Shown here: in pieces, positions 1-11,129 of the stretch
Position numbering within the stretch: position 1 is the first letter of the stretch
Layout of the letters: every line of letters begins with the position of its first letter
IMG/VR virus record: IMGVR_UViG_3300021085_000127
Span: 1-31,619 of that record
DNA from: a virus
Direction: 5' to 3' (one strand)
Length of the DNA stretch: 31,619 nucleotides
Notes under the pieces: model-generated
Databases searched by the model: none
What the model was told of the DNA's origin: nothing
The model's input: only the letters and a program-made list of their open reading frames with translations
Program-made: the position numbers and the translations under genes

Positions 1-569
1 TTTTCGCACAGGCAGATAAGAAGAATAGAAACGGACGTGTCTACCCCAAACCAATTATGGAGAAGGCGGTAGGTAAGTACGTAAAAGAACAAGTATCTAA
101 GAAACGGGCAGTAGGGGAACTAAACCATCCCGAAGGGCCGACAGTTAACTTAGACAAAGTTTCACACCTCATCACAGACCTCAAGTTTGAGGGAAATGAT
201 GTGGTAGGAAAGGCACAAATATTGGATACTCCAATGGGTAAGATTGTAAAAGGTCTTCTTGAAGGTGGTGTTCAACTAGGCGTGTCAACTCGTGGTATGG
301 GTAGCCTTGAGAACCGAAATGGCGCAATGGTCGTCAAAGACGACTTTATTCTTAGTACGGTTGACATCGTACAAGACCCTAGCGCACCTGAAGCTTTCGT
401 TAATGGTATAATGGAAGGTGTAGACTGGGTTTGGAATAACGGTGTTTTGTGTCCTCAAGTAATTGAAAAAATGGAGACTGAAATTAAAACTGCTCCGAAA
501 ACTGTCTTATATGAGACAAGTGTTCGAGAGTTCAAAAATTTCCTCTCGTTAATTAAATCTAATATGTAA
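1..569 (+). CDS. 21: Prohead core protease gp21 (5' partial)
   Basis: Serine protease of the T4 gp21 (phage prohead protease) family; it sits in the prohead core and cleaves scaffold and capsid proteins before DNA packaging. The reading frame is open to the left edge: codons from base 3 carry NRNGRVYP (bases 27-50), a hallmark near the family N-terminus, so the ATG at 57 is internal and only a few residues are missing. Further along, ELNHP holds the presumed catalytic His and GVSTRGMGS the presumed catalytic Ser, in the spacing of T4 gp21. The last ~40 residues look like a divergent tail. It is followed 10 bases later by the scaffold gene and then the capsid gene, the T4 21-22-23 order. Family assignment is firm; the active-site assignment rests on similarity to T4. 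Confidence 0.93.
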   Translation, partial: FAQADKKNRNGRVYPKPIMEKAVGKYVKEQVSKKRAVGELNHPEGPTVNLDKVSHLITDLKFEGNDVVGKAQILDTPMGKIVKGLLEGGVQLGVSTRGMGSLENRNGAMVVKDDFILSTVDIVQDPSAPEAFVNGIMEGVDWVWNNGVLCPQVIEKMETEIKTAPKTVLYETSVREFKNFLSLIKSNM

Positions 570-579
570 GGAGTCAATT

Positions 580-1635
580 ATGACTGAAGAAAGTAAAGTC
601 GAAGTTGAACTTCACGATGAAGACATTAACGACATTGTGGAAGAAACTCTCGAAGAAGGAAGCGCTCCTGCTCCTAAAGGGAAACCTGATACAAATGCAA
701 CTGACGAAGAAGAGTCTATTGCATCTGTAGATAAAGCAGCGGACGCAACCAAAGCAAAACAAGCTCCTGCACCGAAAACAAAAGCGGGCATGATTAATGC
801 AATGAGCATGAAGTTACATTCTATGAAAAAAGATGAACTGACTGCATCATACGGTAAGATGATGGGCGAAGATGTTGAAGTATCAGAAGATGCAATCGTG
901 GAAACACAGATTGACACTTCTGCTGAACTAGACGCATTAGTCGAGTCTGAAGCTACTCTCAGTGATGAGTTTAAAGCTAAAACCGCAGTAATTTTCGAAG
1001 CAGCTGTAAAATCAAAACTGTCTGAAGAAGTAGACAGAATTGAAGCACAGTATAAGGAAGAATTAGCAGAAGAAATCTCTTCTACTAAGGCAGACCTTGT
1101 AGAGAAAGTAGACAGCTACCTTAACTATGTAGTTGAATCTTGGATGGAAGAAAATCAAGTTGCAATCCAGAGCGGACTCCGCACTGAAATTGCCGAGACT
1201 TTCATGGACAAAATGAAAGACCTGTTTACAGAGTCTTACATTGACGTACCTGAATCCAAAGTTGACCTAGTTGACGAACTTGCTGAGTCAGTAGAAGAAC
1301 TAGAGACTCGTCTCAACGAAACTACTCAGAAAGTAATTGATACTACTGGTGAACTGGAAGCTTACAAGCGTGAATCTGTTATCAGAGAAGCGTCACGTGA
1401 CCTTGCAGAAACACAAGTAGTTAAATTGAAGTCGCTCGTAGAAGACATTGACTTTGAAGACGAAGACCAATTCGCCTCTAAAGTTAAAATTGTTGTCGAG
1501 TCCCACTTCGCAAAAGAAATCACAAATAGTGATGAGGTAGAACAAGTTGTAGAAGATGCTGACCAAGAAGTTGAAGTATCATCTGTAATGGAACAATACC
1601 TTGCAACTATTCGTAAAACAACACCTAAAAGATAA
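580..1635 (+). CDS. 22: Prohead scaffolding core protein gp22
   Basis: Major scaffold of the T4-type prohead core, degraded by gp21 during maturation. The 351-residue product is very acidic (runs of Glu/Asp), largely predicted helical/coiled coil, with no cysteines seen, and it contains several I/L-x-E tripeptides of the kind cut by gp21. A clear AAGGAG ribosome site precedes the ATG by a normal spacing. It lies between the protease and capsid genes exactly as in T4. It is longer than T4 gp22 (about 270 residues); the extra length is mainly an N-terminal Ala/Pro/Lys-rich linker around residues 25-70. Sequence identity in this family is low, so position and composition carry much of the call. 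Confidence 0.88.
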   Translation: MTEESKVEVELHDEDINDIVEETLEEGSAPAPKGKPDTNATDEEESIASVDKAADATKAKQAPAPKTKAGMINAMSMKLHSMKKDELTASYGKMMGEDVEVSEDAIVETQIDTSAELDALVESEATLSDEFKAKTAVIFEAAVKSKLSEEVDRIEAQYKEELAEEISSTKADLVEKVDSYLNYVVESWMEENQVAIQSGLRTEIAETFMDKMKDLFTESYIDVPESKVDLVDELAESVEELETRLNETTQKVIDTTGELEAYKRESVIREASRDLAETQVVKLKSLVEDIDFEDEDQFASKVKIVVESHFAKEITNSDEVEQVVEDADQEVEVSSVMEQYLATIRKTTPKR

Positions 1636-1646
1636 GGATAATTAAA

Positions 1647-2960
1647 ATGCAATCTTACGATAGTTTAATCGAAAAATGGGCTCCCGTTCTAAACGAAGAG
1701 TCTGCTGGCGTGATTCAAGACAATCACCGCCGTGCAGTTACCGCTGCAATCTTGGAGAACCAAGAAAAAGCAATCGCTGAAGAGCGTTCTGCTTCTCAAG
1801 GTTTTCTTTCTGAAAACGCTGCTGCTGGTGCGAACAACACTGGTTCAGTAAACAACTTTGACCCTGTGTTAATCTCATTGGTCAGACGTGCTATGCCTAA
1901 CCTCATCGCTTATGATGTGTGTGGTGTACAACCTATGAATGGCCCAACTGGTCTCATCTTTGCGATGAAATCACGTTACCAAGGTGGTTCTACTTCTAAC
2001 CGTGAAGCACTATTCAACGAAGCTGAAACTCAGTTCTCTGGTGATAGTTCTGGTACTCACGATTCAGATAACGCATCTGGTTGGAACGGAATTGATTCAG
2101 AAGGCGCTCGTCTTACTGGTCTTGCTGCTGGCGGAATGCCAACTGAAGACGCAGAAGCACTTGGTCGTACTGGTGGTTCATCTTTCAACGAAATGGGTTT
2201 CACCATTGAAAGACAAACTGTTACTGCTAAGTCACGTGCTCTGAAAGCAGAATACACTCTTGAACTTGCTCAAGACCTTAAAGCAATCCACGGTTTGGAT
2301 GCTGAAACTGAATTGGCAAACATCTTGTCAACTGAGATTCTTGCAGAAATCAACCGTGAAGTAATCAGAACTGTTAACAGCCAAGCTAAAACTGGTGCTC
2401 AACAGTCTAACGTTACTGCTAAAGGTATTTTCAACATGTCATCTGATACAGATGGTCGTTGGTCTGCTGAGAAGTTCAAAGGTCTAACTGTACAGATTGA
2501 CCGTGAATGTAACGTTATTGCTAAAGAGACTCGTAGAGGTAAAGGTAACGTAGTAATCTGTTCTTCAGATGTTGCTACTGCTCTTGCAGCTGCTGGTTCT
2601 TTGGACTATAGTCCTGCTATCAGCAACAACCTACAGGTTGACGATACTGGTAATACTTTTGCTGGTGTATTAAACGGACGTATCCGTGTATACATCGACC
2701 CATATGCTAACACTGATTACATCACTGTTGGTTACAAAGGTCAGAACCCATATGACAGTGGTGTATTCTACTGCCCATACGTTCCTTTGCAAATGGTTAA
2801 AGCAGTTGGTGAAGATGACTTCCAACCACGTATCGGGTTTAAAACTCGTTACGGTATGGCTTCAAACCCATTCGTTGGTTCTACACCTTCTGACGGTCTT
2901 GCTACTGCTAAGACTAACCAGTACTACAGAATCTTCAAGGTTACTAACATCTTGACATAA
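1647..2960 (+). CDS. 23: Major capsid protein gp23
   Basis: HK97-fold major head protein of T4-like phages. The 437-residue product begins with the usual helical pro-sequence; an L-S-E tripeptide at residues 54-56 fits the (L/I)-x-E rule for gp21 cleavage and would leave a mature start at N57-A58. The body has typical gp23 segments such as PNLIAYDVCGVQPM and GPTGLIFAMKSRY, with a Gly/Ser-rich loop at about residues 110-180. It is shorter than T4 gp23 (521 residues), as is common in marine T4-like phages. The ribosome site is AAGGATAA before the ATG. Codon use is strongly biased and GC-richer at third positions, as expected for a highly expressed gene. A strong terminator follows. Confidence 0.96.
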   Translation: MQSYDSLIEKWAPVLNEESAGVIQDNHRRAVTAAILENQEKAIAEERSASQGFLSENAAAGANNTGSVNNFDPVLISLVRRAMPNLIAYDVCGVQPMNGPTGLIFAMKSRYQGGSTSNREALFNEAETQFSGDSSGTHDSDNASGWNGIDSEGARLTGLAAGGMPTEDAEALGRTGGSSFNEMGFTIERQTVTAKSRALKAEYTLELAQDLKAIHGLDAETELANILSTEILAEINREVIRTVNSQAKTGAQQSNVTAKGIFNMSSDTDGRWSAEKFKGLTVQIDRECNVIAKETRRGKGNVVICSSDVATALAAAGSLDYSPAISNNLQVDDTGNTFAGVLNGRIRVYIDPYANTDYITVGYKGQNPYDSGVFYCPYVPLQMVKAVGEDDFQPRIGFKTRYGMASNPFVGSTPSDGLATAKTNQYYRIFKVTNILT

Positions 2961-2998
2961 GTCTGTAATAAGAAGAGTGAGGTTAACTCACCATTCTT

Positions 2999-3028
2999 TA
3001 AAGGGTCTCTTCGGAGACCCTTTTTTTT
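2999..3028 (+). terminator. Rho-independent terminator after gp23
   Basis: A 7-bp G/C-rich stem, GGGTCTC (3003-3009) pairing with GAGACCC (3014-3020), is closed by a TTCG tetraloop and followed by eight Ts (3021-3028). Three flanking A-T pairs can lengthen the stem. The UUCG loop is among the most stable known. It ends head-gene transcription just before a new late promoter. Confidence 0.95.
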
Positions 3029-3032
3029 GTCT

Positions 3033-3040
3033 TATAAATA
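3033..3040 (+). promoter_or_regulatory. T4-type late promoter TATAAATA
   Basis: An exact TATAAATA octamer, the -10 element recognised by gp55-RNA polymerase activated by the gp45 clamp in T4. It starts five bases after the terminator T-run and no -35 element is visible. It would start transcription near 3046 and read the small lipoprotein gene after a leader of about 90 bases. gp55 and gp45 are both encoded in this window, which supports the mechanism. Confidence 0.8.
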
Positions 3041-3077
3041 AGTGTGTTCACGAACTGAACAAAGTAGTAAGGTCGGT

Positions 3078-3119
3078 ATTACTGCACGGTATTATCGGGG
3101 TATCTGGTTATCCAGTAAT
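3078..3119 (+). other. Possible stem-loop in lipoprotein leader
   Basis: Between the late promoter and the lipoprotein start, ATTACTG (3078-3084) is exactly complementary to CAGTAAT (3113-3119), and a small CTGG-TTAT-CCAG hairpin lies inside. It ends about 20 bases before the start codon, close to the GGAGAG ribosome site, so it could affect translation or mRNA stability. A 7-bp match could be chance. Confidence 0.35.
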
Positions 3120-3138
3120 CTAGAAACAGGAGAGTACT

Positions 3139-3345
3139 ATGCGTATCATTGCAATTGCATTCGCATTAGTTTTGTCTGCTTGTTCCACCGTTGATGCAAC
3201 CATTGACGGTACTGGTGGTGTTATTAAAGGTGTCGGTTCAGATGTCTTTGGTGTTACCGCAGGCGTATTGGATGTAACATCTAATCTTATTAAAGATGTT
3301 GCAGACAAGACTGGAACTGCCGCAACTAAGCCAGAAGAAGAATAA
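3139..3345 (+). CDS. Small late-expressed lipoprotein
   Basis: A 68-residue predicted lipoprotein. It has a signal peptide with a hydrophobic core (IIAIAFALV) and a lipobox L-S-A-C, so signal peptidase II should cut before Cys15; the mature part would be about 54 residues, Gly/Val/Thr/Asp-rich with a Lys/Glu tail. Residues +2/+3 after the Cys are Ser-Thr, which in enteric-type bacteria favours the outer membrane. GGAGAG precedes the ATG. The gene forms its own unit between a TATAAATA late promoter and a terminator. Function is not known; phage lipoproteins of this kind can block receptors (superinfection exclusion) or help at lysis, but that is inference. Composition vaguely recalls entericidin-like peptides. 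Confidence 0.8.
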   Translation: MRIIAIAFALVLSACSTVDATIDGTGGVIKGVGSDVFGVTAGVLDVTSNLIKDVADKTGTAATKPEEE

Positions 3346-3349
3346 AGGA

Positions 3350-3375
3350 AAGGGGACGTTAAGTCCCCTTTTTTT
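3350..3375. terminator. Bidirectional terminator between lipoprotein and tRNA
   Basis: Stem GGGGAC (3352-3357) pairs with GTCCCC (3363-3368), extended by flanking A-T pairs, with loop GTTAA. On the + strand it ends in a run of seven Ts (3369-3375). On the - strand the stem is followed by a T-rich tract, so it can also stop leftward transcription of the tRNA-Gly that ends at 3381. Confidence 0.88.
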
Positions 3376-3380
3376 GTGAT

Positions 3381-3455
3381 TGGAGCGGAGAGGTAGAATT
3401 GCACTACCACCTCTAGGTTGGAAACCTAATGTTCTACTCGTTGAACTATCTCCGC
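3381..3455 (-). tRNA. tRNA-Gly (anticodon UCC), CCA encoded
   Basis: Read on the - strand, a complete 75-nt cloverleaf can be drawn. The acceptor stem is GCGGAGA with TCTCCGC, the D stem GTTC with GAAC, and the anticodon stem TTAGG with CCTAG around loop TTTCCAA, giving anticodon TCC (glycine, GGA/GGG codons). The T stem is GGTAG with CTACC, the discriminator is T, and the CCA end is encoded. The T loop is TGCAATT rather than the usual TTC-type; C56 and A58 are kept. A dedicated sigma70-like promoter lies immediately upstream and a bidirectional terminator immediately downstream, so it looks like a stand-alone transcription unit. Confidence 0.93.
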
Positions 3456-3466
3456 ATTGTTTGTAT

Positions 3467-3495
3467 ATAGTACCAGACTATACAGTTAAAGTCAA
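3467..3495 (-). promoter_or_regulatory. Sigma70-type promoter for tRNA-Gly
   Basis: On the - strand TTGACT (3495-3490) and TACTAT (3472-3467) are separated by exactly 17 bp. The expected transcription start, near 3460, is only about five bases before the mature 5' end of the tRNA. The TGA inside TTGACT is the stop codon of the ParB-like gene. Confidence 0.8.
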
Positions 3496-4478
3496 GCCGC
3501 TTTTACCAATTCTTTTAAACTTTCTTTTCCACGTTCTTGTGGTAGAAACCCAATCATGTTCAAAGGAAAGATTTTTAGTCCACACTGTTGCAAGTCACGT
3601 CTGTGTTGTTCCAACTGTTTCATGAACTTTTTTCTTTTAGTTTCTAGAGTCGCCTTTGCAGTTGGAGCACCCACGTGTCCAACCAAATCGGTATATTTAC
3701 CCGTTTCCACGTAACGTGTGATAGCTTGCATGATAACACGATACTGGTAACCTTCACCAATACACACACCATAGGTATCGGCTTCTGGGTTAAACTCACC
3801 ACCGATTTTATGTTCTACCGATGAGTGGTTATCAATCCAGTCCTGTATCTTAGGAACGGATGTGTATATAATGTATGGTTGAGGCGTCCCCGTCTCTTCC
3901 ATAACCATCTTCACAACACGATTCCTAACAGACTTATCACGGGTCTTACCGTAGATACGAATGAACTCATCGCTGATTGACTTCTCAGAGTTTTTAATAA
4001 GTCCTCTAGAAACTTTAGAACTTAGGTATTTACGCATATCAACTTCTTTGTTGAGACGTTTTACATATCCTTCGTTTTCTCTTGCTTGGACATCTTTCAT
4101 CTGTTCTAGTGTACCAGAAAACAAAGTAAATATCCACGACTTCGTTCCAAGTGCTCGAATCGCTTCGGAACGACCATATCCATATACCAAGACATATCTT
4201 TTGTCATGTCCTTCACCACGGTCATATACCGCTGGAGGAAACTCCATTGTGTCAACTCCACCAGCAAAAGATAAACGAAGTTGTTCAATCTCTTGTGCGG
4301 TGTGTGTTTCCACTTTGGTGTACTGACCATCAATATCATCAATATGAATATCTTTGAAGTCGAGTTTTATATTTTTTACAGATGTTACACCAAGGTCGGT
4401 GTAGTCGGGTAACGCAATTGCGTCAGGGTGGGTGTTATGAAAATCACTGTATGTGACATAACGTGTAGGCATAGCCAT
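3492..4478 (-). CDS. ParB-box domain protein
   Basis: A 328-residue protein carrying what looks like an N-terminal ParB/sulfiredoxin-type domain. YGYGRSEAIRALG (residues 99-111) matches the ParB box pattern G-x-x-R-x-x-A-x-x-x-L-G, and EN-x(5)-RLNKE (134-145) matches the downstream EN...R element. The tail (about 275-328) is basic and helical. ParB-like domains bind CTP in chromosome segregation proteins, but in phages related domains occur in nucleases, ATPase-like regulators and DNA-modification islands; no specific role can be assigned. The ATG has AGGAG upstream. It follows the DruA-like gene 81 bases downstream on the same strand, so the two are probably cotranscribed, and they form the only leftward protein genes in the window. 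Confidence 0.6.
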   Translation of the reverse strand: MAMPTRYVTYSDFHNTHPDAIALPDYTDLGVTSVKNIKLDFKDIHIDDIDGQYTKVETHTAQEIEQLRLSFAGGVDTMEFPPAVYDRGEGHDKRYVLVYGYGRSEAIRALGTKSWIFTLFSGTLEQMKDVQARENEGYVKRLNKEVDMRKYLSSKVSRGLIKNSEKSISDEFIRIYGKTRDKSVRNRVVKMVMEETGTPQPYIIYTSVPKIQDWIDNHSSVEHKIGGEFNPEADTYGVCIGEGYQYRVIMQAITRYVETGKYTDLVGHVGAPTAKATLETKRKKFMKQLEQHRRDLQQCGLKIFPLNMIGFLPQERGKESLKELVKAA

Positions 4479-4559
4479 AGTATTTCTCCTATTGGATTAA
4501 ATTAAGTGAAGTAGAAGACTCATAGAGAATTTCTAAAACACAATAGTATATATAAGACT

Positions 4560-5699
4560 TTATCTTATAATATCAATATCGTCTGCGTTTGTATTCCAAG
4601 TCTCTATAACAGAACGCAAACGTCCATCTGCTTTTAGAGTTTCGTAGCGATTGGTCGCCTTCTTACGCCACCAATCTGTCACACCCTCAAGACTGAACCT
4701 ATCAAAGTTATCTGCTTTGACAATGGTATCCGACTCAAGGTTGAGATACTTCTTCACACTCTCACGGTCATATCCCATGCAAGAGTAGTATGAATTCTTT
4801 TGTTGTGTTAGTCCCTTTGCATCAATAAAGGTTTGACAGAACTTGCTGTATGCATTCATGTCATATTCCTTCAGAGAGTTCTTAATGATAGACACCATCT
4901 TCTGTTGTGTCTTCAACTTACGGGATGATGCATCCTTTGGTACAAGAGACTCACCGTTGTTACGTTGTATGAACCAGTCACTCAATGTACGATAGTTGTT
5001 ATCATTGATGAGTGGTGCAAAGTTAGAGTCAGTCTGACCATTACCAATCAGTAACGGTTTCATACCTGAGTACATAGACACACCACCCTTGGCATTACCG
5101 TATAAGGATGTTGTCTCGAACATACAGATGTTTGCATCATACTTCTTATTGAGTGCATCACGTACAGTATGTGAGGTACATATAGATGCAAGTAACTTAC
5201 CACCGAGGTAGTTGAATCCGAATGGTTGTACTGGTACGATATTGAATCCCATGATACAGGACTCGTTGAATCGTTTCATGACCTCTGCATTCATTGTGTC
5301 TAGAGGTTTACCTAACCATTCATTACGTGGTCTACTATTAATAGTGGGTGACCCGAATCGAATCATACCAATGACCATACCTGTGTTCTTCTCACGTACT
5401 ACCCAATTCATCATCTTGCCTGGAATTGACGCTTCTACGGGTGCGGATGTTGTGATATCCATATAGGACATGAATTGGTCACGTTTCGCTTCTGCGATAG
5501 TGAACTCCATATCTTGGGGGTGCATGTCAAACTTATTGAACAGGTCTTCCTCTGGGCCCATGCCAGGCAGAGTGAACGGCATAGAGTCCATCCGTTCTAG
5601 TTTAATCTGTCTCATATAGTCATCAATACGGTCAAAGTTCGCAAAGAACTCTGTAAAGATGTTTGCAGCGTATTCTGCATCTGTTTTGGATAAAATCAT
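4560..5699 (-). CDS. DruA-like (DUF4338-type) protein
   Basis: A 379-residue protein whose middle matches the layout of the DUF4338 family that includes DruA of the Druantia defence system. In order: VIGMIRFGSP (109-118), PRNEWLG (124-130, compare R-D-x-W-I-G-W), IVPVQPFG (154-161, compare L-P-W-V), GGKLLASI (166-173, compare LASH), and FETTSLYG (194-201, compare ETFV...F-x-G). The C-terminal half is basic with many Lys/Arg and Trp. No signal peptide or membrane segment is seen. DruA's biochemistry is unsettled, and no helicase partner such as DruE is adjacent, so a complete Druantia system is not present. It may act with the ParB-like protein. The - strand promoter at 5724-5752 gives a leader of about 17 bases. 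Homology was read by eye and is not confirmed. Confidence 0.6.
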   Translation of the reverse strand: MILSKTDAEYAANIFTEFFANFDRIDDYMRQIKLERMDSMPFTLPGMGPEEDLFNKFDMHPQDMEFTIAEAKRDQFMSYMDITTSAPVEASIPGKMMNWVVREKNTGMVIGMIRFGSPTINSRPRNEWLGKPLDTMNAEVMKRFNESCIMGFNIVPVQPFGFNYLGGKLLASICTSHTVRDALNKKYDANICMFETTSLYGNAKGGVSMYSGMKPLLIGNGQTDSNFAPLINDNNYRTLSDWFIQRNNGESLVPKDASSRKLKTQQKMVSIIKNSLKEYDMNAYSKFCQTFIDAKGLTQQKNSYYSCMGYDRESVKKYLNLESDTIVKADNFDRFSLEGVTDWWRKKATNRYETLKADGRLRSVIETWNTNADDIDIIR

Positions 5700-5723
5700 G
5701 TATATCTCTCAGTTATGTGTACC

Positions 5724-5752
5724 ACTATACAGTATATAGCAATTAATGTCAA
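5724..5752 (-). promoter_or_regulatory. Sigma70-type promoter for leftward island
   Basis: On the - strand TTGACA (5752-5747), a 17-bp spacer, then TATAGT (5729-5724). It reads into the DruA-like gene at 5699. It stands back to back with the + strand promoter at 5778, leaving 25 bp between the two -35 boxes, room for a shared regulator. Confidence 0.85.
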
Positions 5753-5777
5753 GCGGTAAATTAATTGAAAAAAAGTG

Positions 5778-5806
5778 TTGCCAAAACCTGTTTCTGTTGT
5801 TATAAT
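5778..5806 (+). promoter_or_regulatory. Sigma70-type promoter, TTGCCA class
   Basis: TTGCCA (5778-5783), exactly 17 bp, then TATAAT (5801-5806). The -35 region is embedded in a 12-mer, TGTTGCCAAAAC (5776-5787), repeated exactly at the promoter at 6351. It drives the small-gene cluster starting at 5841. Confidence 0.87.
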
Positions 5807-5840
5807 AACAAGGTAAAGTCAAAAAACAAGAGAGAAAATT

Positions 5841-6173
5841 ATGACCGCATTTAATAAAGAAGAGTTCACGTGGGACGGTATGTACTTGATGTACCGTGGT
5901 AGACACACTGAGAGTGTGAACATGGAGGTCGCAAGACCAAACTGTCACCCATCTTGGGTTGGTTTACCACAACCCGCCTTCATCGCAAGGTTCAAGTATG
6001 GTTACAAACCTTGGAAGGCATGGGTCAACTTCCTAGTGAAGAACGTGACCGTTGAGAAGTATCTTGAACTGTCTAACCATGACAACAAGTTCTACTCTGA
6101 GAAGTACGGTTACGAAGTTAGTGGTTCTCCTGTCTATGCAATGGAAGCCCTTGGTTACAAGGGTAAGAAATAA
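5841..6173 (+). CDS. Small hypothetical protein, first of early-type cluster
   Basis: 110 residues, not recognised. It is rich in aromatic and basic residues (several Trp, Tyr, Phe, Lys), mildly basic and apparently soluble. GAGAGA lies upstream of the ATG, and a consensus promoter ends 34 bases before it. The stop overlaps the next ATG (TAATG), so translation may be coupled. Position right behind a near-perfect host-type promoter suggests early expression and possibly host takeover, which is inference only. Confidence 0.75.
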   Translation: MTAFNKEEFTWDGMYLMYRGRHTESVNMEVARPNCHPSWVGLPQPAFIARFKYGYKPWKAWVNFLVKNVTVEKYLELSNHDNKFYSEKYGYEVSGSPVYAMEALGYKGKK

Positions 6174-6367
6174 TGGAGTACTTACAAGAGGTCACTGATT
6201 GGGGAGATACAAAAGTCTCCAATCACACCTACATCGTGAACAAACAGGGTCAACTAGCTGGGTATATCAAGGTAGGTACTACCGAAGAAATCTGGTTCAA
6301 GAAACCCATGAAACAGTGGTCAAAGGCGAGAAGAAAGTTTAAAAAACTTGTTGCCAAAACTAGTTAA
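6173..6367 (+). CDS. Small hypothetical basic protein
   Basis: 64 residues, unrecognised. The N-terminal half reads as a beta-rich segment (NHTYIVNKQGQLAGYIKVGT) and the C-terminus is a Lys/Arg-rich helix, so nucleic-acid binding is possible. It is translationally coupled to the gene before it through TAATG. Its last codons overlap the -35 box of the next promoter (6351). Confidence 0.7.
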   Translation: MEYLQEVTDWGDTKVSNHTYIVNKQGQLAGYIKVGTTEEIWFKKPMKQWSKARRKFKKLVAKTS

Positions 6368-6379
6368 GTATAGTATAAT
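6351..6379 (+). promoter_or_regulatory. Sigma70-type promoter, TTGCCA class
   Basis: TTGCCA (6351-6356), 17-bp spacer, TATAAT (6374-6379). It shares the exact 12-mer TGTTGCCAAAAC with the promoter at 5778. Predicted start is near 6386, giving a 20-base leader with GAGGA before the gene at 6406. Confidence 0.87.
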
Positions 6380-6405
6380 ACTTGTATTGATAATGAGGAA
6401 TGGTT

Positions 6406-6573
6406 ATGAGAATTATTGAAGTGAATATCAACGAAGTCAAAAACTTCCGTGCGGGTTTCGAGTTAGTCGAATACGAGAACGGTACTGACCCAATGGACGG
6501 TTTTGTCCTGTTAGGTTTTGACGAAGTCGGTCAATTTTGTAAAGAACCCAAATACGCATTTATCGGAGAGTAA
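6406..6573 (+). CDS. Small acidic hypothetical protein
   Basis: 55 residues, unrecognised, starting MRIIEVNINEV. Acidic, probably a small alpha/beta fold. The start is supported by GAGGA eight to ten bases upstream and a promoter 27 bases upstream; the stop lies one base before the next ATG. Typical of small phage early proteins; no motif was found. Confidence 0.68.
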   Translation: MRIIEVNINEVKNFRAGFELVEYENGTDPMDGFVLLGFDEVGQFCKEPKYAFIGE

Positions 6574-6574
6574 T

Positions 6575-7093
6575 ATGAAGATTGTAATCCAAACCCAAAT
6601 CCTTGAGAACTATGCCGCTCATTATGAGAACTATTCTCATGGGGTCGATGAGGCATACTGGAAGGCCAAGGGTGGTAACACCTACGTGGTCGAGGGTGTA
6701 TCTATTGAGGACGCACAGTCCGAGGGTTACTACGATACCATCTTCGATTTAATCACCGAGAACAACGAGTCGTTCCAAGAGTACATCTTGGGTTCCGACT
6801 TGATTGATGACGTGGACTTCGTTGAGTCTGACCACAAACAACCGTGGGAATCAATCACCTATATCACCCAAGAGGGTGAACAGTTCAGTGCAACCAAGAC
6901 CGTGGAGAACGGTGAGTATGGTTACATGAGGAAGGAAATCGCAAAAGTGGTCGAGTCCTATGTAATGAAAGATAGGGACTTTGATGGTGCGAATTCTTTC
7001 TTCGAGAACGGAACATTCCGTAAACAGTTCCATCTCGTTGATGGTACGGTTTGTAATAACAGTAGTGAATTTTTAAATGTGATAGGAGCATAG
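6575..7093 (+). CDS. Acidic hypothetical protein
   Basis: 172 residues, starting MKIVIQTQILENYAAHY. Strongly acidic, with many Glu/Asp, Tyr and Asn. GGAGAG overlaps the end of the preceding gene and lies four bases before this ATG, which decides this start over the upstream in-frame codon at 6518 that would overlap gene 6406-6573. No catalytic motif is visible. Acidic phage proteins of this size can be DNA mimics that inhibit restriction or RNA polymerase; that is a guess based on charge alone. Confidence 0.72.
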   Translation: MKIVIQTQILENYAAHYENYSHGVDEAYWKAKGGNTYVVEGVSIEDAQSEGYYDTIFDLITENNESFQEYILGSDLIDDVDFVESDHKQPWESITYITQEGEQFSATKTVENGEYGYMRKEIAKVVESYVMKDRDFDGANSFFENGTFRKQFHLVDGTVCNNSSEFLNVIGA

Positions 7094-7094
7094 T

Positions 7095-7292
7095 ATGGAA
7101 AAGTTTGAAGTAAGATTAGCGAACACGGGTCAAGCGTGTTTCAAGTGGTACAGGTTTGATACCGCTAAAGAGGCAGTGAAGTTTGTTTTGAAACAACTGC
7201 ATGAAGTTGGGTTTACCGTTGATGGTAAAACCTATGAAGAGAAGTTCGAGGAAATCGAATGGGTAGGAAAAGGGAGAATAGTCAATGTATGA
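7095..7292 (+). CDS. Small hypothetical protein
   Basis: 65 residues, unrecognised, starting MEKFEVRLANTG; a compact alpha/beta protein with alternating Lys/Glu. It starts one base after the previous stop, with GGAGCAT as ribosome site. It belongs to the same tight cluster and overlaps the next small gene by eight bases. Confidence 0.68.
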   Translation: MEKFEVRLANTGQACFKWYRFDTAKEAVKFVLKQLHEVGFTVDGKTYEEKFEEIEWVGKGRIVNV

Positions 7293-7422
7293 TTATCATA
7301 GATTAATTGCAGCAGCCATGGTTGCACAACAACGTGGCAAGTCTGACTGGTGTAAAAAGTATTGGGGTGAGGTCGTTGACAAACTCGTAAAAAATATGCG
7401 TGAACAGGACACTGTACACTAA
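7285..7422 (+). CDS. Very small hypothetical protein
   Basis: 45 residues, starting MYDYHRLIAAAMVAQQ, basic and helical, with no membrane segment. AGGGAGAAT lies about nine bases upstream of the ATG at 7285. It ends eight bases before the late promoter at 7431. Its placement in a continuous train of overlapping genes is the main support. Confidence 0.58.
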   Translation: MYDYHRLIAAAMVAQQRGKSDWCKKYWGEVVDKLVKNMREQDTVH

Positions 7423-7430
7423 AAATCTCT

Positions 7431-7438
7431 TATAAATA
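7431..7438 (+). promoter_or_regulatory. T4-type late promoter TATAAATA
   Basis: An exact TATAAATA, with transcription expected to begin near 7444, about 18 bases before the structural gene at 7462. An 8-bp inverted repeat, CTCTTATA (7427-7434) with TATAAGAG (7448-7455), brackets it. Confidence 0.8.
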
Positions 7439-7461
7439 GAAGTATAATATAAGAGGTAGTT

Positions 7462-7989
7462 ATGCCAGTAAATAGTAAAGTTCAGATATCCGATGAGGAA
7501 CTGACAACCAATCTAAACTACTTACAACCCACAGGGTTTAAGGTAGTTATCGACAGAACGAAGTATCCTAATATGGAATACTTTGTTCAATCCGTATCAC
7601 ATCCAGGCGCTTCACTGGCACCTGTCGAACTTCCTGTACGCAGAATAACATCCGTCCCATTAGCTGGTGACAAGATGACTTTCACCGAAGTCTCGTTCTC
7701 AATTATCTTGGACGAAAACATGAAGTCATATAAAGAGATGTTTAACTGGATGACCCGAATTGTTAATGACGGTCAAGTCAGTGGATTGGAGAGAGGTACG
7801 GGAACACCTACCTATGCAGACATAACGTTGCATGTTCTGTCCAGTCACAACAACACTACTCAGAAGGTTAGGTATCTAGATTGTGTACCTACGTCTCTGG
7901 GTAATATTGAATTTACTTCTACAACAGGAGATGTTACCTATCTGACATTTGATGCGTCATTTAGGTTCTCACAATTCGAGATAGTTTAA
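7462..7989 (+). CDS. Tail-tube-fold virion structural protein
   Basis: 175 residues. The pattern (N-terminal beta strand TGFKVVIDRTKYP, a 'SVSHPGASLAPVELPVRR' stretch, PLAGDKMTFTEVSFSIILDENM, then KEMFNWM) resembles the T4 gp19 tail-tube family and related baseplate-tube caps (gp48/gp54), where F/W-based strands and 'aGD..F...V...DE......F..W' recur. It has its own late promoter, as expected for a virion protein. Length is near T4 gp19 (163). It stands away from the tail gene block, before uvsY, so it may be a second tube-like or baseplate protein rather than the main tube. Confidence 0.6.
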   Translation: MPVNSKVQISDEELTTNLNYLQPTGFKVVIDRTKYPNMEYFVQSVSHPGASLAPVELPVRRITSVPLAGDKMTFTEVSFSIILDENMKSYKEMFNWMTRIVNDGQVSGLERGTGTPTYADITLHVLSSHNNTTQKVRYLDCVPTSLGNIEFTSTTGDVTYLTFDASFRFSQFEIV

Positions 7990-8022
7990 CCCTATATAAT
8001 TTTACAGTATGGAGAATATATT

Positions 8023-8472
8023 ATGATTGACTTGGAAAGTATCCTTGCAGAATGGAAAGAAGACTGTGAGATATCCAAACATCAATTGGATGAAACATCA
8101 CGTGTGACCCCAGCGTTACACTCAAAATACCTTGAGTACCTTTCGTTGACTAAGTTGCGTCTTAAACAGGCGGAGTTTAAACAGAAAGTTTTACTCAAAG
8201 ACAAATACCTCTATTACGAAGGCAAGATGTCACAAGAAGACATCGAGTCTCGTGGGTGGGCGTATGACCCATACGAAGGTCTTAGTGCGACCACCAAAAA
8301 CTTCAAAGAGTACTACTACGATTCGGATAAGGAAATCCAAGACTCTGAAATGAAGATACAGTATCTAAAAACAATTATAGATACACTTACGGAGATAGTC
8401 AATAATCTTAATTGGCGTCACCAAACAATTGGAAACATGATTCGTTGGAGGGCCTTTGAAGCAGGTCAATAA
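8023..8472 (+). CDS. uvsY: UvsY recombination mediator
   Basis: 149 residues (T4 UvsY is 137). UvsY loads UvsX recombinase onto gp32-coated single-stranded DNA and acts as a ring oligomer. Recognised by the N-terminal LESILAEWKEDCEIS, then P-A-LHSKYLEYL and KLRLKQAEFKQK, typical of the family; the rest is helical and basic-aromatic. The ATG has GGAGAAT upstream. It lies directly before a small membrane gene and uvsW, the same neighbourhood as in T4 (uvsY, uvsY.-1/-2, uvsW). Partner UvsX is encoded at 27731. Confidence 0.92.
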   Translation: MIDLESILAEWKEDCEISKHQLDETSRVTPALHSKYLEYLSLTKLRLKQAEFKQKVLLKDKYLYYEGKMSQEDIESRGWAYDPYEGLSATTKNFKEYYYDSDKEIQDSEMKIQYLKTIIDTLTEIVNNLNWRHQTIGNMIRWRAFEAGQ

Positions 8473-8477
8473 ACCAT

Positions 8478-8612
8478 ATGTTAAAAGAAATGAAAGAAAC
8501 GTTTACGGTTAATAAAATTTACCAATCCCGATGGGTGTGGTATCATACCATCCTTGCGTTTGAAATTTTCCTAACCAATATTCTACTGATAGCTATTCTC
8601 GTTAAAATATGA
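8478..8612 (+). CDS. Small membrane protein between uvsY and uvsW
   Basis: 44 residues: a basic N-terminal part (MLKEMKETFTVNKIYQSR) followed by one transmembrane helix over about residues 22-42, ending in Lys. It starts five bases after the uvsY stop and overlaps the uvsW start as ATGA. T4 also has tiny genes at this place (uvsY.-1, uvsY.-2); sequence relation is not shown. Function unknown. Confidence 0.65.
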   Translation: MLKEMKETFTVNKIYQSRWVWYHTILAFEIFLTNILLIAILVKI

Positions 8613-10096
8613 GTCTACCTAATACCATACGTGTGGGTTTGAAAGATAACTCCATGATGTTGATTGATGCGGAAGCACACCAGATTCCTGAGTTGCGAGA
8701 TTACTTCTCGTTTTATGTTCCTGGCCATAAATTTATGCCCGCATTCAAATCCCGCAAATGGGATGGGAAGATAAAGTTATTCAACCAAATCACACGTGAA
8801 CTCAATGTAGGTCTTTATGCACATCTGAAGAAATTCTGTGCAAACAGAATGTACCCTATTGAGTTGATTGATAATGATGAGTACGGACACCCCGAAGAAA
8901 AGAACCATGTCCAACACCAGAACCTTGTTAAGTTCCAGAGTGGACTGGAGATGCCATTCCCTTTACGTGATTATCAGTATGATGCGGTAACACACGGTAT
9001 CGAAAAGAAACGGGCAATACTGTTGTCACCGACAGGTAGTGGTAAGTCGTTCATCATCTACAATCTAATGCGTTGGTATATGGACAACTTTGATAAACAG
9101 ATACTCGTTGTTGTTCCGACAACAAGTCTGGTAGAACAGATGTATAAGGACTTCGAGGACTATGGTTATGATGTACAGAATAATGTACATCGTATCTACA
9201 GTGGTAAGGACAAGACAACCGACAAATCCATTATCATCTCTACATGGCAGTCTATCTACAAGTTTCCGAAGGAGTGGTTCGAGCAGTTTGGTTGTGTGTT
9301 CGGTGACGAGGTACATCTATTCAAGGCAAAGTCACTGTCTGGTATTATGAATAAGTGTACAAAAGCACCATATAGATTTGGTACAACTGGTACTTTAGAT
9401 GGCACCGAGACCAACAAACTGGTACTAGAAGGATTGTTTGGCCCGACATATAAAGTGACCGCAACTCGTGACCTACAGGAGAAGGGTACACTTGCGAAGA
9501 TAGACATCTCTGTCTTGTTACTGCGTTACCATAATGATGTGTGTCATATGCTGAAGGACGCAACCTATCAAGAAGAACTGGACTACATCGTTACCAATGA
9601 GAAACGCAATAAGTTAATCACGAACCTTGCATTAGACCAGAAGGGTAATACTCTGGTATTGTTTCAGTTCGTAGAGAAACACGGTAAGATTCTCTTTGAT
9701 ATGATGAGAGATAAAGCAAAGGATGGCCGCAAAATATTCTATGTGTCGGGGGAAGTAGACGCCGCTGACCGTGAACAAATTCGTGGCATCGTGGAGGGTC
9801 AAAATGATGCAATTATTGTTGCTAGTTTGGGTACTTTCAGTACTGGTATTAATATTAGGAATCTTCATAACATAGTATTCGCATCACCTAGTAAGAGTCA
9901 GGTTAAGGTACTACAGTCCATAGGGCGTGGTCTGAGACAGTCTGATGACGGCTCTGTGACTAAGTTATACGATATTGCGGATGATTTACATATCCGCAGT
10001 CATAAAAACTTTACACTGCGTCACAGTGCAGAAAGAATTAAGATATATACTAAAGAACAATTCCCTTATAAGATACATCAATTGGATTTAAAATGA
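8609..10096 (+). CDS. uvsW: UvsW DNA/RNA helicase
   Basis: Superfamily 2 helicase, 495 residues (T4 UvsW 503). It unwinds R-loops and branched DNA and drives the switch from origin-dependent to recombination-dependent replication. Motifs in order: an N-terminal UvsW-type domain with RKWDGKIKLFN (49-59); DYQYDAV Q-like motif (121-127); Walker A PTGSGKS (141-147); DEVH (233-236); GTTGTLDGT (258-266); and motif VI QSIGRGLRQ (436-444). The start overlaps the small membrane gene, and its stop overlaps the next ATG. In T4 it is a late gene; no late promoter is visible directly upstream here. Confidence 0.95.
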   Translation: MSLPNTIRVGLKDNSMMLIDAEAHQIPELRDYFSFYVPGHKFMPAFKSRKWDGKIKLFNQITRELNVGLYAHLKKFCANRMYPIELIDNDEYGHPEEKNHVQHQNLVKFQSGLEMPFPLRDYQYDAVTHGIEKKRAILLSPTGSGKSFIIYNLMRWYMDNFDKQILVVVPTTSLVEQMYKDFEDYGYDVQNNVHRIYSGKDKTTDKSIIISTWQSIYKFPKEWFEQFGCVFGDEVHLFKAKSLSGIMNKCTKAPYRFGTTGTLDGTETNKLVLEGLFGPTYKVTATRDLQEKGTLAKIDISVLLLRYHNDVCHMLKDATYQEELDYIVTNEKRNKLITNLALDQKGNTLVLFQFVEKHGKILFDMMRDKAKDGRKIFYVSGEVDAADREQIRGIVEGQNDAIIVASLGTFSTGINIRNLHNIVFASPSKSQVKVLQSIGRGLRQSDDGSVTKLYDIADDLHIRSHKNFTLRHSAERIKIYTKEQFPYKIHQLDLK

Positions 10097-10536
10097 CAAA
10101 AAACATAGACGTAGACGTTCGACAATTTAAACTTGCTAACGGAGAAGAGATACTGTGTGAGGTTGTCCAGTGGAGTGAACACATGGAGGAGATTGAAATC
10201 CTAACACGTAAAGCGATGCGATTAATCATGCAAGAGAATGGTGATGGATTTAAGTATTATGCTTTTCGACCTTGGATGGTTTACCAAGAATCCGATGAGG
10301 ATTTAATCATCCTCAATTCAAATCATGTTGTAGGTATTGCATTCCCAACCCGTACACTCTTGTTACAATACTACGAAGCTGTAGCCGACATGAGTGATAT
10401 GCACAGAGTGAGAGAAAGTGAATACGAAGAAGAACATGTCCGACCAACCAAGGGGGACAAGATTGATGACTATCTAAGTCGTATGGATAGTGGTTCAAAT
10501 GTTATTGATATGTTTTCGGATAAAAAGTTGCACTGA
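10093..10536 (+). CDS. Hypothetical protein with LSm/SH3-like barrel
   Basis: 147 residues. The first ~95 (FKLANGEEILCEV, EILTRKAMRLIMQ, YYAFRPWMVYQES, LIILNSNHVVGIAFP) show the strand-turn pattern of an Sm/LSm-like small barrel: a 'NGEEI' turn, a middle strand pair, and a hydrophobic 'I.LN...V' strand. The remaining third is an acidic, probably disordered tail. Such barrels often bind RNA or make rings, but RNA binding is not demonstrated here. Overlaps uvsW and the next gene by a few bases, so it is in the same operon. Fold assignment is by eye. Confidence 0.7.
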   Translation: MTKNIDVDVRQFKLANGEEILCEVVQWSEHMEEIEILTRKAMRLIMQENGDGFKYYAFRPWMVYQESDEDLIILNSNHVVGIAFPTRTLLLQYYEAVADMSDMHRVRESEYEEEHVRPTKGDKIDDYLSRMDSGSNVIDMFSDKKLH

Positions 10537-11129
10537 TGAACAATTTTGAAACGAAGATTAGAACTCGTGAAACTATGGACGAGTATATCTTCACTAAATA
10601 TATTGATGACGAGGAAATGAATGAAGGCATCATACGAGGTATCCGTGAGACGGGTGATGAAACAAATCATCTCAGTAATCTAAAACACGATACTACTCTG
10701 GGATTCATGCATATGAAGTATCCAGATTCGTTTGGTAAGTTGGTAACGTATATCGAAGACTTCTGTAAGTCTTCTTCTTTACAGAGGAACTACGAAAACC
10801 CCCATCACGCACATAGACCAGATATTCCGATGTGGAAGGAAGCATACATAGATAATCAGAGAGTCAATGTAATGTGGGGTGCAAGGGCAGAGAGTGGACA
10901 AATTGCGACACCGCACGACCACTGGCCCACGATATGGACTTTTTGTTATTACATCCAACCGCCCGAAGGATGTTCAGGATTATATTTTAGAAATTCGGAT
11001 TATGAATTACCTGTTGAACATGGACTATTGGTTATATTTAATAGTAACCTTATACACGAAACACTTTCTAGAGAATTTACAGGTGAACGATTTTGTGTGT
11101 CAGGAACAGTAGTATCCAACCCTCTCTGA
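10536..11129 (+). CDS. 2OG-Fe(II) oxygenase-like protein
   Basis: 197 residues with a likely double-stranded beta-helix oxygenase core. ATPHDHW (125-130) can supply the first metal ligands, YYIQPPEGCSGLYF (138-151) is the usual strand after them, and IFNSNLIHET (167-176) gives the distal His (H174), followed by a strand with R185, which could bind 2-oxoglutarate. T4-like marine phages carry several such proteins of unknown substrate. The exact ligand set is odd, with H-D-H rather than a clear H-x-D. It ends the uvsY-uvsW run; a - strand promoter lies right behind it. Confidence 0.68.
   Translation: MNNFETKIRTRETMDEYIFTKYIDDEEMNEGIIRGIRETGDETNHLSNLKHDTTLGFMHMKYPDSFGKLVTYIEDFCKSSSLQRNYENPHHAHRPDIPMWKEAYIDNQRVNVMWGARAESGQIATPHDHWPTIWTFCYYIQPPEGCSGLYFRNSDYELPVEHGLLVIFNSNLIHETLSREFTGERFCVSGTVVSNPL

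What the first reader, a model, noticed from the sequence alone, without database searches (positions are those of the whole stretch)
4560..5699. Orphan DruA-like (DUF4338-type) protein carried by a T4-like phage
The order of motifs (FGSP, PRNEWLG, VPVQPFG, GGKLLASI, FETTSLYG) resembles DruA of the Druantia anti-phage system, but no DruE-type helicase is adjacent. A phage-borne single DruA-like protein could be a counter-defence decoy, an inter-phage exclusion factor, or the ancestral enzyme from which the defence protein was built. Seen: motif order. Known: DruA is DUF4338. Inferred: any role.
Basis: partly seen in the sequence, partly recalled or inferred. Interest (0 to 1): 0.75.

Follow-up and report, generated by a model that had tools for sequence, protein, structure and literature searches.

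The report
DruA-family acyltransferase in marine phages
A T4-like marine virus carries, without the rest of that bacterial defence system, a relative of the defence protein DruA; it has the fold of an acyl-group-transferring enzyme, is distantly related to the phage enzyme Mom that marks viral DNA, and most likely modifies the virus's own DNA as it is copied.

Summary
Confirmed: window 4560-5699 (-) is a real 379-aa gene under strong purifying selection. It passes Pfam's cut-off for PF14236/DruA (40.3 bits, cut-off 27), and no DruE helicase is near it. The presence of DruA-like proteins in cyanophages is already published (Phold, NAR 2026), including a homologue 47% identical to this one.

New here:
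(1) The confident model (pLDDT 90) has the GNAT acyltransferase fold.
(2) The phage family is a separate clade, sister to non-Druantia orphans and outside Druantia DruA.
(3) A transposon-associated DUF4338 branch is a clear profile-level homologue of the Mom DNA-modification family (hhalign E 7e-10), so DUF4338/DruA and Mom are related GNATs. The phage clade itself lacks Mom's conserved HY, ELNR and SFAD residues and keeps only the Tyr, so it is not a Mom.
(4) The gene usually sits in the replisome operon (gp44-X-gp62, or next to gp43). In the window's clade it forms a two-gene cassette with a ParB-fold protein, and this pair recurs at several genomic locations.

Best explanation: a CoA-dependent acyltransferase acting on phage DNA, coupled to replication. 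Fold and homology are shown; substrate and chemistry are inferred. The decoy, exclusion and 'ancestor of DruA' ideas have no support.

The parts
4560..5699 (-). DUF4338 (PF14236)-family protein, 379 aa, orphan DruA-like GNAT; PHROG 19197
   Evidence: dN/dS 0.03-0.10
5010..5519 (-). GNAT-fold core, residues 61-230, with Q158-PFG-FNYL-GGK168 (candidate CoA pyrophosphate loop) and TTS198...S208-x-Y210
   Evidence: AF2 model pLDDT 90; Foldseek to GNATs; conservation
4563..5009 (-). C-terminal helical extension, residues 231-379, basic (25 K+R / 21 D+E, pI 9.0), conserved SSRKLK..Q.KM..IIK.SL and WWRKKA..RYE.L
   Evidence: secondary structure
3492..4478 (-). Partner gene: ParB-fold protein, 328 aa, 81 nt downstream of the DUF4338 gene on the same strand; recurrent co-mobile neighbour
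   Evidence: Foldseek ranks 1-28 all ParB/Noc/KorB, best E=2.8e-4 (model pLDDT 76); linkage in 30 of 35 informative loci
4479..4559 (-). 81-nt intergenic gap with a strong Shine-Dalgarno-like sequence (AGGAGAA) before the ParB-fold gene
   Evidence: sequence

Best explanation
The protein is a GNAT-fold, CoA-dependent acyltransferase of the DUF4338 superfamily. It most likely acts on phage DNA: while the replisome (gp45/gp44/gp62/gp43) copies the genome, the enzyme attaches a small acyl-type group to a base, as Mom does in phage Mu, and so shields the new DNA from host nucleases. In the window's clade a co-inherited ParB-fold DNA-binding protein probably helps load or direct it on DNA. Shown: family membership, GNAT fold, clade, homology of the wider DUF4338 family to Mom, replisome-operon placement, ParB-fold partner. 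Inferred: CoA use, DNA as substrate, protection as purpose, role of the partner. The exact chemistry is probably not Mom's, because Mom's signature residues other than the Tyr are missing.
For: Fold: AF2 pLDDT 90.2, pTM 0.85. Foldseek PDB hits are predominantly GNATs (2wpx E=3e-3, prob 1.0); the best functionally named viral hit is Mom of Salmonella phage FSL SP-031 (E=5e-4). A published analysis independently calls DUF4338 a GNAT (PMC10853773). Homology to Mom: transposon-associated DUF4338 vs Mom hhalign Prob 96.6, E=6.6e-10, score 68 against a shuffle maximum of 18 and unrelated families 11-20; the same branch matches DruA and orphans at Prob 95-97.5. Placement: 32 of 61 non-redundant homologues lie beside gp43/gp44/gp62, 9 in the gp23/tail-tube island, 20 undetermined; direct operon maps. 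Partner: ParB fold, directly downstream (gap 122 nt or less) in 27 and within 1.5 kb in 3 of 35 informative loci, at three kinds of location; the one isolate phage with the partner also has a DUF4338 gene 5 kb away. ParB-like genes also neighbour Mom in phages Appa and LeeroyJ. Patchy distribution, about 26 of 437 T4-like Synechococcus phages/cyanophages and 0 of 24 Prochlorococcus phages, suits an anti-restriction accessory.
Against: Direct profile comparison of the phage family with Mom is at noise level (Prob 1.9, score 23.7; unrelated gp62 gives 21), so the Mom link is transitive only. Mom's HY, ELNR and SFAD motifs are kept in the transposon branch but lost in the phage and DruA branches. 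Foldseek separates Mom only weakly from other GNATs. Replisome placement would also fit a protein substrate. I found no base-modification data for any carrier phage. The ParB-fold partner is missing from most homologues and from 5 informative loci.
Confidence: 0.5

Rival explanations
1. Protein acyltransferase: it acylates a host or phage protein (RNA polymerase, clamp loader, or the ParB-fold partner) to redirect replication or transcription, like the phage phiKMV GNAT Rac.
For: GNAT fold; operon with gp44/gp62, itself a protein complex; phage GNATs acting on RNA polymerase are known (PMC7824862).
Against: The wider DUF4338 family is profile-homologous to the DNA modifier Mom, occurs fused to a Tn5-type transposase and in Druantia, which are DNA-centred settings; the conserved basic C-terminal helices suggest nucleic-acid binding.
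Confidence: 0.25
2. A non-catalytic or otherwise CoA-independent DNA-binding relative that senses or bridges DNA for replication, having lost enzymatic activity along with Mom's active-site residues.
For: Loss of Mom's HY, R and D residues in both the phage and DruA clades.
Against: The phage clade has its own dense set of invariant polar residues in the GNAT domain (R125, Q158, K168, T196-T197-S198, S208, Y210) and dN/dS 0.03-0.10, which look catalytic.
Confidence: 0.13
3. Counter-defence decoy against Druantia, or a superinfection-exclusion factor built from a DruA homologue.
For: True homology to Druantia DruA (hhalign Prob 98.5, E=2.4e-15).
Against: The phage clade groups with non-Druantia orphans, not with DruA (97/98); it lacks the PPYxxLLGGKL and SSxYNRLK variants of DruA; conserved replisome placement and active-site-like conservation are not expected of a decoy. 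Whether Synechococcus or Pelagibacter hosts carry Druantia was not tested.
Confidence: 0.07
4. RNA (for example tRNA) acetyltransferase used for phage translation.
For: GNAT fold; TmcA appears among the PDB Foldseek hits (2zpa, E=1e-2).
Against: No helicase or recognised tRNA-binding domain; the TmcA alignment has rmsd 21; placement is with replication genes.
Confidence: 0.05

Closest known systems
Druantia type I DruA (PF14236/DUF4338), e.g. Meiothermus pMtWR-220, Nitrosococcus pNWAT01, P. putida pKF715A
   Same: Homologous domain (Pfam over cut-off; hhalign Prob 98.5); shares R125, GGKL, TTS..G, S-x-Y and G-x-T positions
   Different: No DruB-E; separate clade; QPFGFN instead of PPYxxL; different N- and C-terminal parts; phage replisome operon instead of a defence locus
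DruA-like CDS of six Synechococcus phages reported by Phold (NAR 2026, PMC12774648; example S-PRM1)
   Same: Same family: the S-PRM1 protein is 47% identical to this one over its whole length
   Different: That report gives structural similarity only; no GNAT/Mom relation, operon, ParB partner or phylogeny in the passages found
Mom family (PF25680), phage Mu Mom DNA methylcarbamoylase
   Same: GNAT fold; homologous to the transposon branch of DUF4338; encoded by phages; sometimes next to a ParB-like gene
   Different: Phage clade lacks the HY, ELNR and SFAD residues; no direct significant sequence match; has extra helical N- and C-terminal parts
Orphan DUF4338 of bacterial integrative elements and pelagiphage Mosig
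   Same: IVPxQPFGxN, TTTSLYG, SxYD motifs; sister clade (97/98)
   Different: RDxxIGW instead of PRNxxLG; about 21-26% identity; beside an integrase, and in L120 beside a YunG-family gene

Membership tests
DUF4338 / DruA (PF14236) | Pfam score above gathering cut-off | tested here: met
   40.3 bits vs 27; relatives 35-80 bits
DUF4338 / DruA (PF14236) | Profile homology to DruA of bona fide Druantia loci | tested here: met
   hhalign Prob 98.5, E=2.4e-15
Druantia DruA proper | Groups with DruA of DruE-bearing loci | tested here: not met
   Phage and orphan clade separate, 97/98
Druantia system | DruE YprA-type helicase nearby | tested here: not met
   None in window; none in any Kyanoviridae record
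GNAT superfamily | GNAT fold | tested here: met
   Model pLDDT 90; Foldseek PDB hits predominantly GNATs, prob up to 1.0 though E only about 3e-3; literature agrees
GNAT superfamily | Acyl-CoA binding and acyl transfer | not testable with these tools
   Q158..G161..G166-G167-K168 loop resembles the pyrophosphate-binding motif (inference)
Mom (PF25680) | Pfam Mom hit | tested here: not met
   PF25680 is in the library but is not listed for this protein at E up to 1
Mom (PF25680) | Direct profile similarity | tested here: not met
   Prob 1.9, score 23.7, near noise
Mom (PF25680) | Conserved HY, ELNR, SFAD, G..(V/I)YQA motifs | tested here: not met
   Only the Tyr (Y210) is kept; counterparts of all four are present in the transposon DUF4338 branch
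Mom (PF25680) | Transfers a methylcarbamoyl group to adenine in DNA | not testable with these tools
   Needs DNA mass spectrometry
ParB family (partner gene 3492-4478) | ParB N-domain fold | tested here: met
   Foldseek ranks 1-28 ParB/Noc/KorB, best E=2.8e-4
ParB family (partner gene 3492-4478) | Pfam ParB match | tested here: not met
   No ParB model at E up to 1

The most novel reading that the evidence does not exclude
Marine T4-like phages of Synechococcus, Pelagibacter and uncultured hosts carry an unrecognised DNA hypermodification system: a DUF4338 acyltransferase with chemistry different from Mom, run with the replisome and in one lineage directed by a ParB-fold protein. By homology, Druantia DruA would also be a DNA-modifying or DNA-marking enzyme, giving Druantia type I a modification component.
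Probability: 0.25. Interest if true: 0.82.

Novelty: new variant of a known kind. Interest (0 to 1): 0.52.

Why it matters
I found no described biochemical role for DruA in Druantia. A link DruA - transposon DUF4338 - Mom gives a concrete, testable hypothesis for it (a GNAT acyltransferase acting on DNA) and predicts a new base modification in cultured cyanophages such as S-SSM7, S-PRM1 and S-CAM9, which mass spectrometry of virion DNA could check directly. It also suggests that annotating these phage genes as 'anti-phage defence' is misleading.

Tried and rejected
phmmer and hmmsearch against PDB sequences: no relative (the single 3nz3 hit at E=0.02 is taken as chance). NCBIfam: nothing. Direct hhalign of the phage family, DruA, orphans, or all DUF4338 combined against Mom: not significant; only the transposon branch gives the link. 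Pfam on the partner gene: nothing; its ParB identity rests on the fold. I looked for a replacement enzyme upstream of the partner gene in the five loci without DUF4338: none obvious. ParB next to Mom is not general: 2 of 5 Mom loci whose flanks I read. Papers on DruA function, on DUF4338 plus Mom, and on DNA modification in T4-like cyanophages: none found in the held library; the key Mom papers are not held, so I did not rely on recalled Mom mutagenesis. The 'ancestor of DruA' reading was rejected on the tree.

Full report
OBSERVATION. The window is a 31.6-kb IMG/VR fragment of a T4-like phage: prohead protease, scaffold and gp23 at the left, then an accessory island, tail tube, a phage DNA helicase, SbcD/SbcC-type subunits (gp47/gp46), gp45, gp44, gp62, regA, gp43 and uvsX. 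The 379-codon ORF at 4560-5699 (-) lies in the island between gp23 and the tail tube. Synonymous changes far outnumber replacements against five relatives (dN/dS 0.03-0.10).

FAMILY. PF14236 matches at 40.3 bits (cut-off 27) and PADLOC DruA1 at 3e-7. hhalign against DruA from four loci that also carry the large DEAD/DEAH helicase gives Prob 98.5, E 2.4e-15. tblastn finds 31 phage records: 26 Synechococcus phages/cyanophages, 3 pelagiphages and 2 single-cell marine viruses. A gp43 search gives the denominators: 376 Synechococcus, 61 'Cyanophage' and 24 Prochlorococcus records, so the gene is a patchy accessory and absent from the Prochlorococcus isolates. IMG/VR holds at least 594 relatives. 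The Phold paper (PMC12774648) already reported DruA-like proteins in six Synechococcus phages, S-PRM1 among them, which is 47% identical to ours. One depositor calls a homologue 'methylcarbamoylase mom' and another 'iron-binding protein'.

FOLD. An AlphaFold2 model on 54 sequences has pLDDT 90.2 and pTM 0.85. PDB Foldseek hits are predominantly GNAT acyltransferases, individually weak in E-value (best about 3e-3) but with high probability. In the viral library the best hits are uncharacterised giant-virus proteins (Faunusvirus E 2e-15), followed by a phage fragment and a phage Mom (E 5e-4). A published analysis of Dnd systems also describes DUF4338 as a GNAT domain (PMC10853773).

LINK TO MOM. 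The phage family does not match Mom above noise. A DUF4338 branch on transposons, once fused to a Tn5-type transposase, does: Prob 96.6, E 6.6e-10, score 68 against shuffles of at most 18. It carries the Mom-like motifs HYLG, NNSRF, NLASR and ETFVDPxRFxGTxYRAANW, corresponding to Mom's HYS, ELNR, NSESR and SFADxxxGxxGxVYQASNF. The same branch matches DruA and the orphans at Prob 95-97.5 (and the phage family alone at Prob 69). I conclude that DUF4338 and Mom are homologous GNATs. In the phage and DruA branches HY, the Arg and the Asp are gone; the Tyr (Y210) remains, with a different invariant set R125, GGK168, TTS198, S208. So: related to Mom, not a Mom, probably different chemistry.

PHYLOGENY. 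In an IQ-TREE tree of 33 proteins the phage family is one clade (100/99), joined to bacterial and pelagiphage orphans (97/98), with Druantia DruA outside. The split from DruA assumes that the root lies towards the transposon branch, which the Mom homology supports. The transposon branch is long and its rows are under half filled, so deep placement is uncertain.

GENOMIC CONTEXT. In Kyanoviridae isolates read here the gene is in the replisome operon, between gp44 and gp62 with stop/start overlaps or overlapping the end of gp43. Among 61 non-redundant homologues, 32 adjoin gp43/gp44/gp62 and 9 sit in the gp23/tail-tube island as here; the rest are undetermined, many cut by contig ends.

PARTNER. 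Directly downstream (3492-4478, -) is a 328-aa protein with no Pfam hit but a ParB fold (Foldseek ranks 1-28; model confidence moderate, pLDDT 76). Of 37 IMG/VR loci with a relative of it, 27 have the DUF4338 gene directly upstream and 3 within 1.5 kb, 5 lack it despite at least 5.9 kb of upstream sequence, and 2 are cut. The pair occurs at the gp23 island, between regA and gp43, and after gp43, so it is linked across rearrangements. These loci are partly redundant. Among 50,697 phage records only pelagiphage Mosig has the partner, and it also has a divergent DUF4338 gene 5 kb upstream. ParB-like genes lie near Mom in phages Appa and LeeroyJ, but not in three other Mom phages read.

INTERPRETATION. 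Best supported is an acyltransferase on phage DNA working alongside replication, as set out under Best explanation, with a protein substrate as the main rival. The decoy and exclusion readings have no positive evidence beyond homology to DruA. No experiment or base-modification data found here bear on this yet, so substrate, cofactor and function stay inferred.

Noticed in passing
L228/L210 (genome G242), L228:1415-3694 (-): DUF4338 domain fused to a Tn5-type transposase (Tnp_DNA_bind, DDE_Tnp_1, Dimer_Tnp_Tn5); related DUF4338 copies lie in transposase-rich regions and one is annotated as an ISAs1 transposase. A Mom-like GNAT riding on transposases is unexplained.
   Followed up: partly
BFVD hits A0A3G4ZXG3 (Faunusvirus), A0A5K0UAJ3 (Yasminevirus), A0A3G4ZRA1 (Dasosvirus): The best structural matches of the phage protein are uncharacterised proteins of giant DNA viruses (E down to 2e-15), one about 470 aa, two over 1100 aa.
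   Followed up: no
L116:9065-9565 (+) and L120:7188-7544 (-): Two distant loci carrying DUF4338 outside Druantia share a neighbouring YunG-like gene (over Pfam cut-off in L120, just below in L116) and an integrase-like gene, hinting at a conserved mobile cassette.
   Followed up: partly
window 3139-3346 (+): Small lipoprotein-like ORF (MRIIAIAFALVLSACS...) between gp23 and the tRNA gene, resembling an entericidin-type lipoprotein.
   Followed up: no
window 3381-3455 (-): tRNA-Gly (TCC) at the edge of the gp23/tail-tube accessory island next to the ParB-fold gene.
   Followed up: no
L206 (Pelagibacter phage Mosig), about 1-11000: The divergent DUF4338 gene lies in a run of several 2OG-Fe(II) oxygenases, a phytanoyl-CoA dioxygenase, peptide deformylase, MazG and an SMC-like gene, possibly a larger modification cluster.
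   Followed up: no
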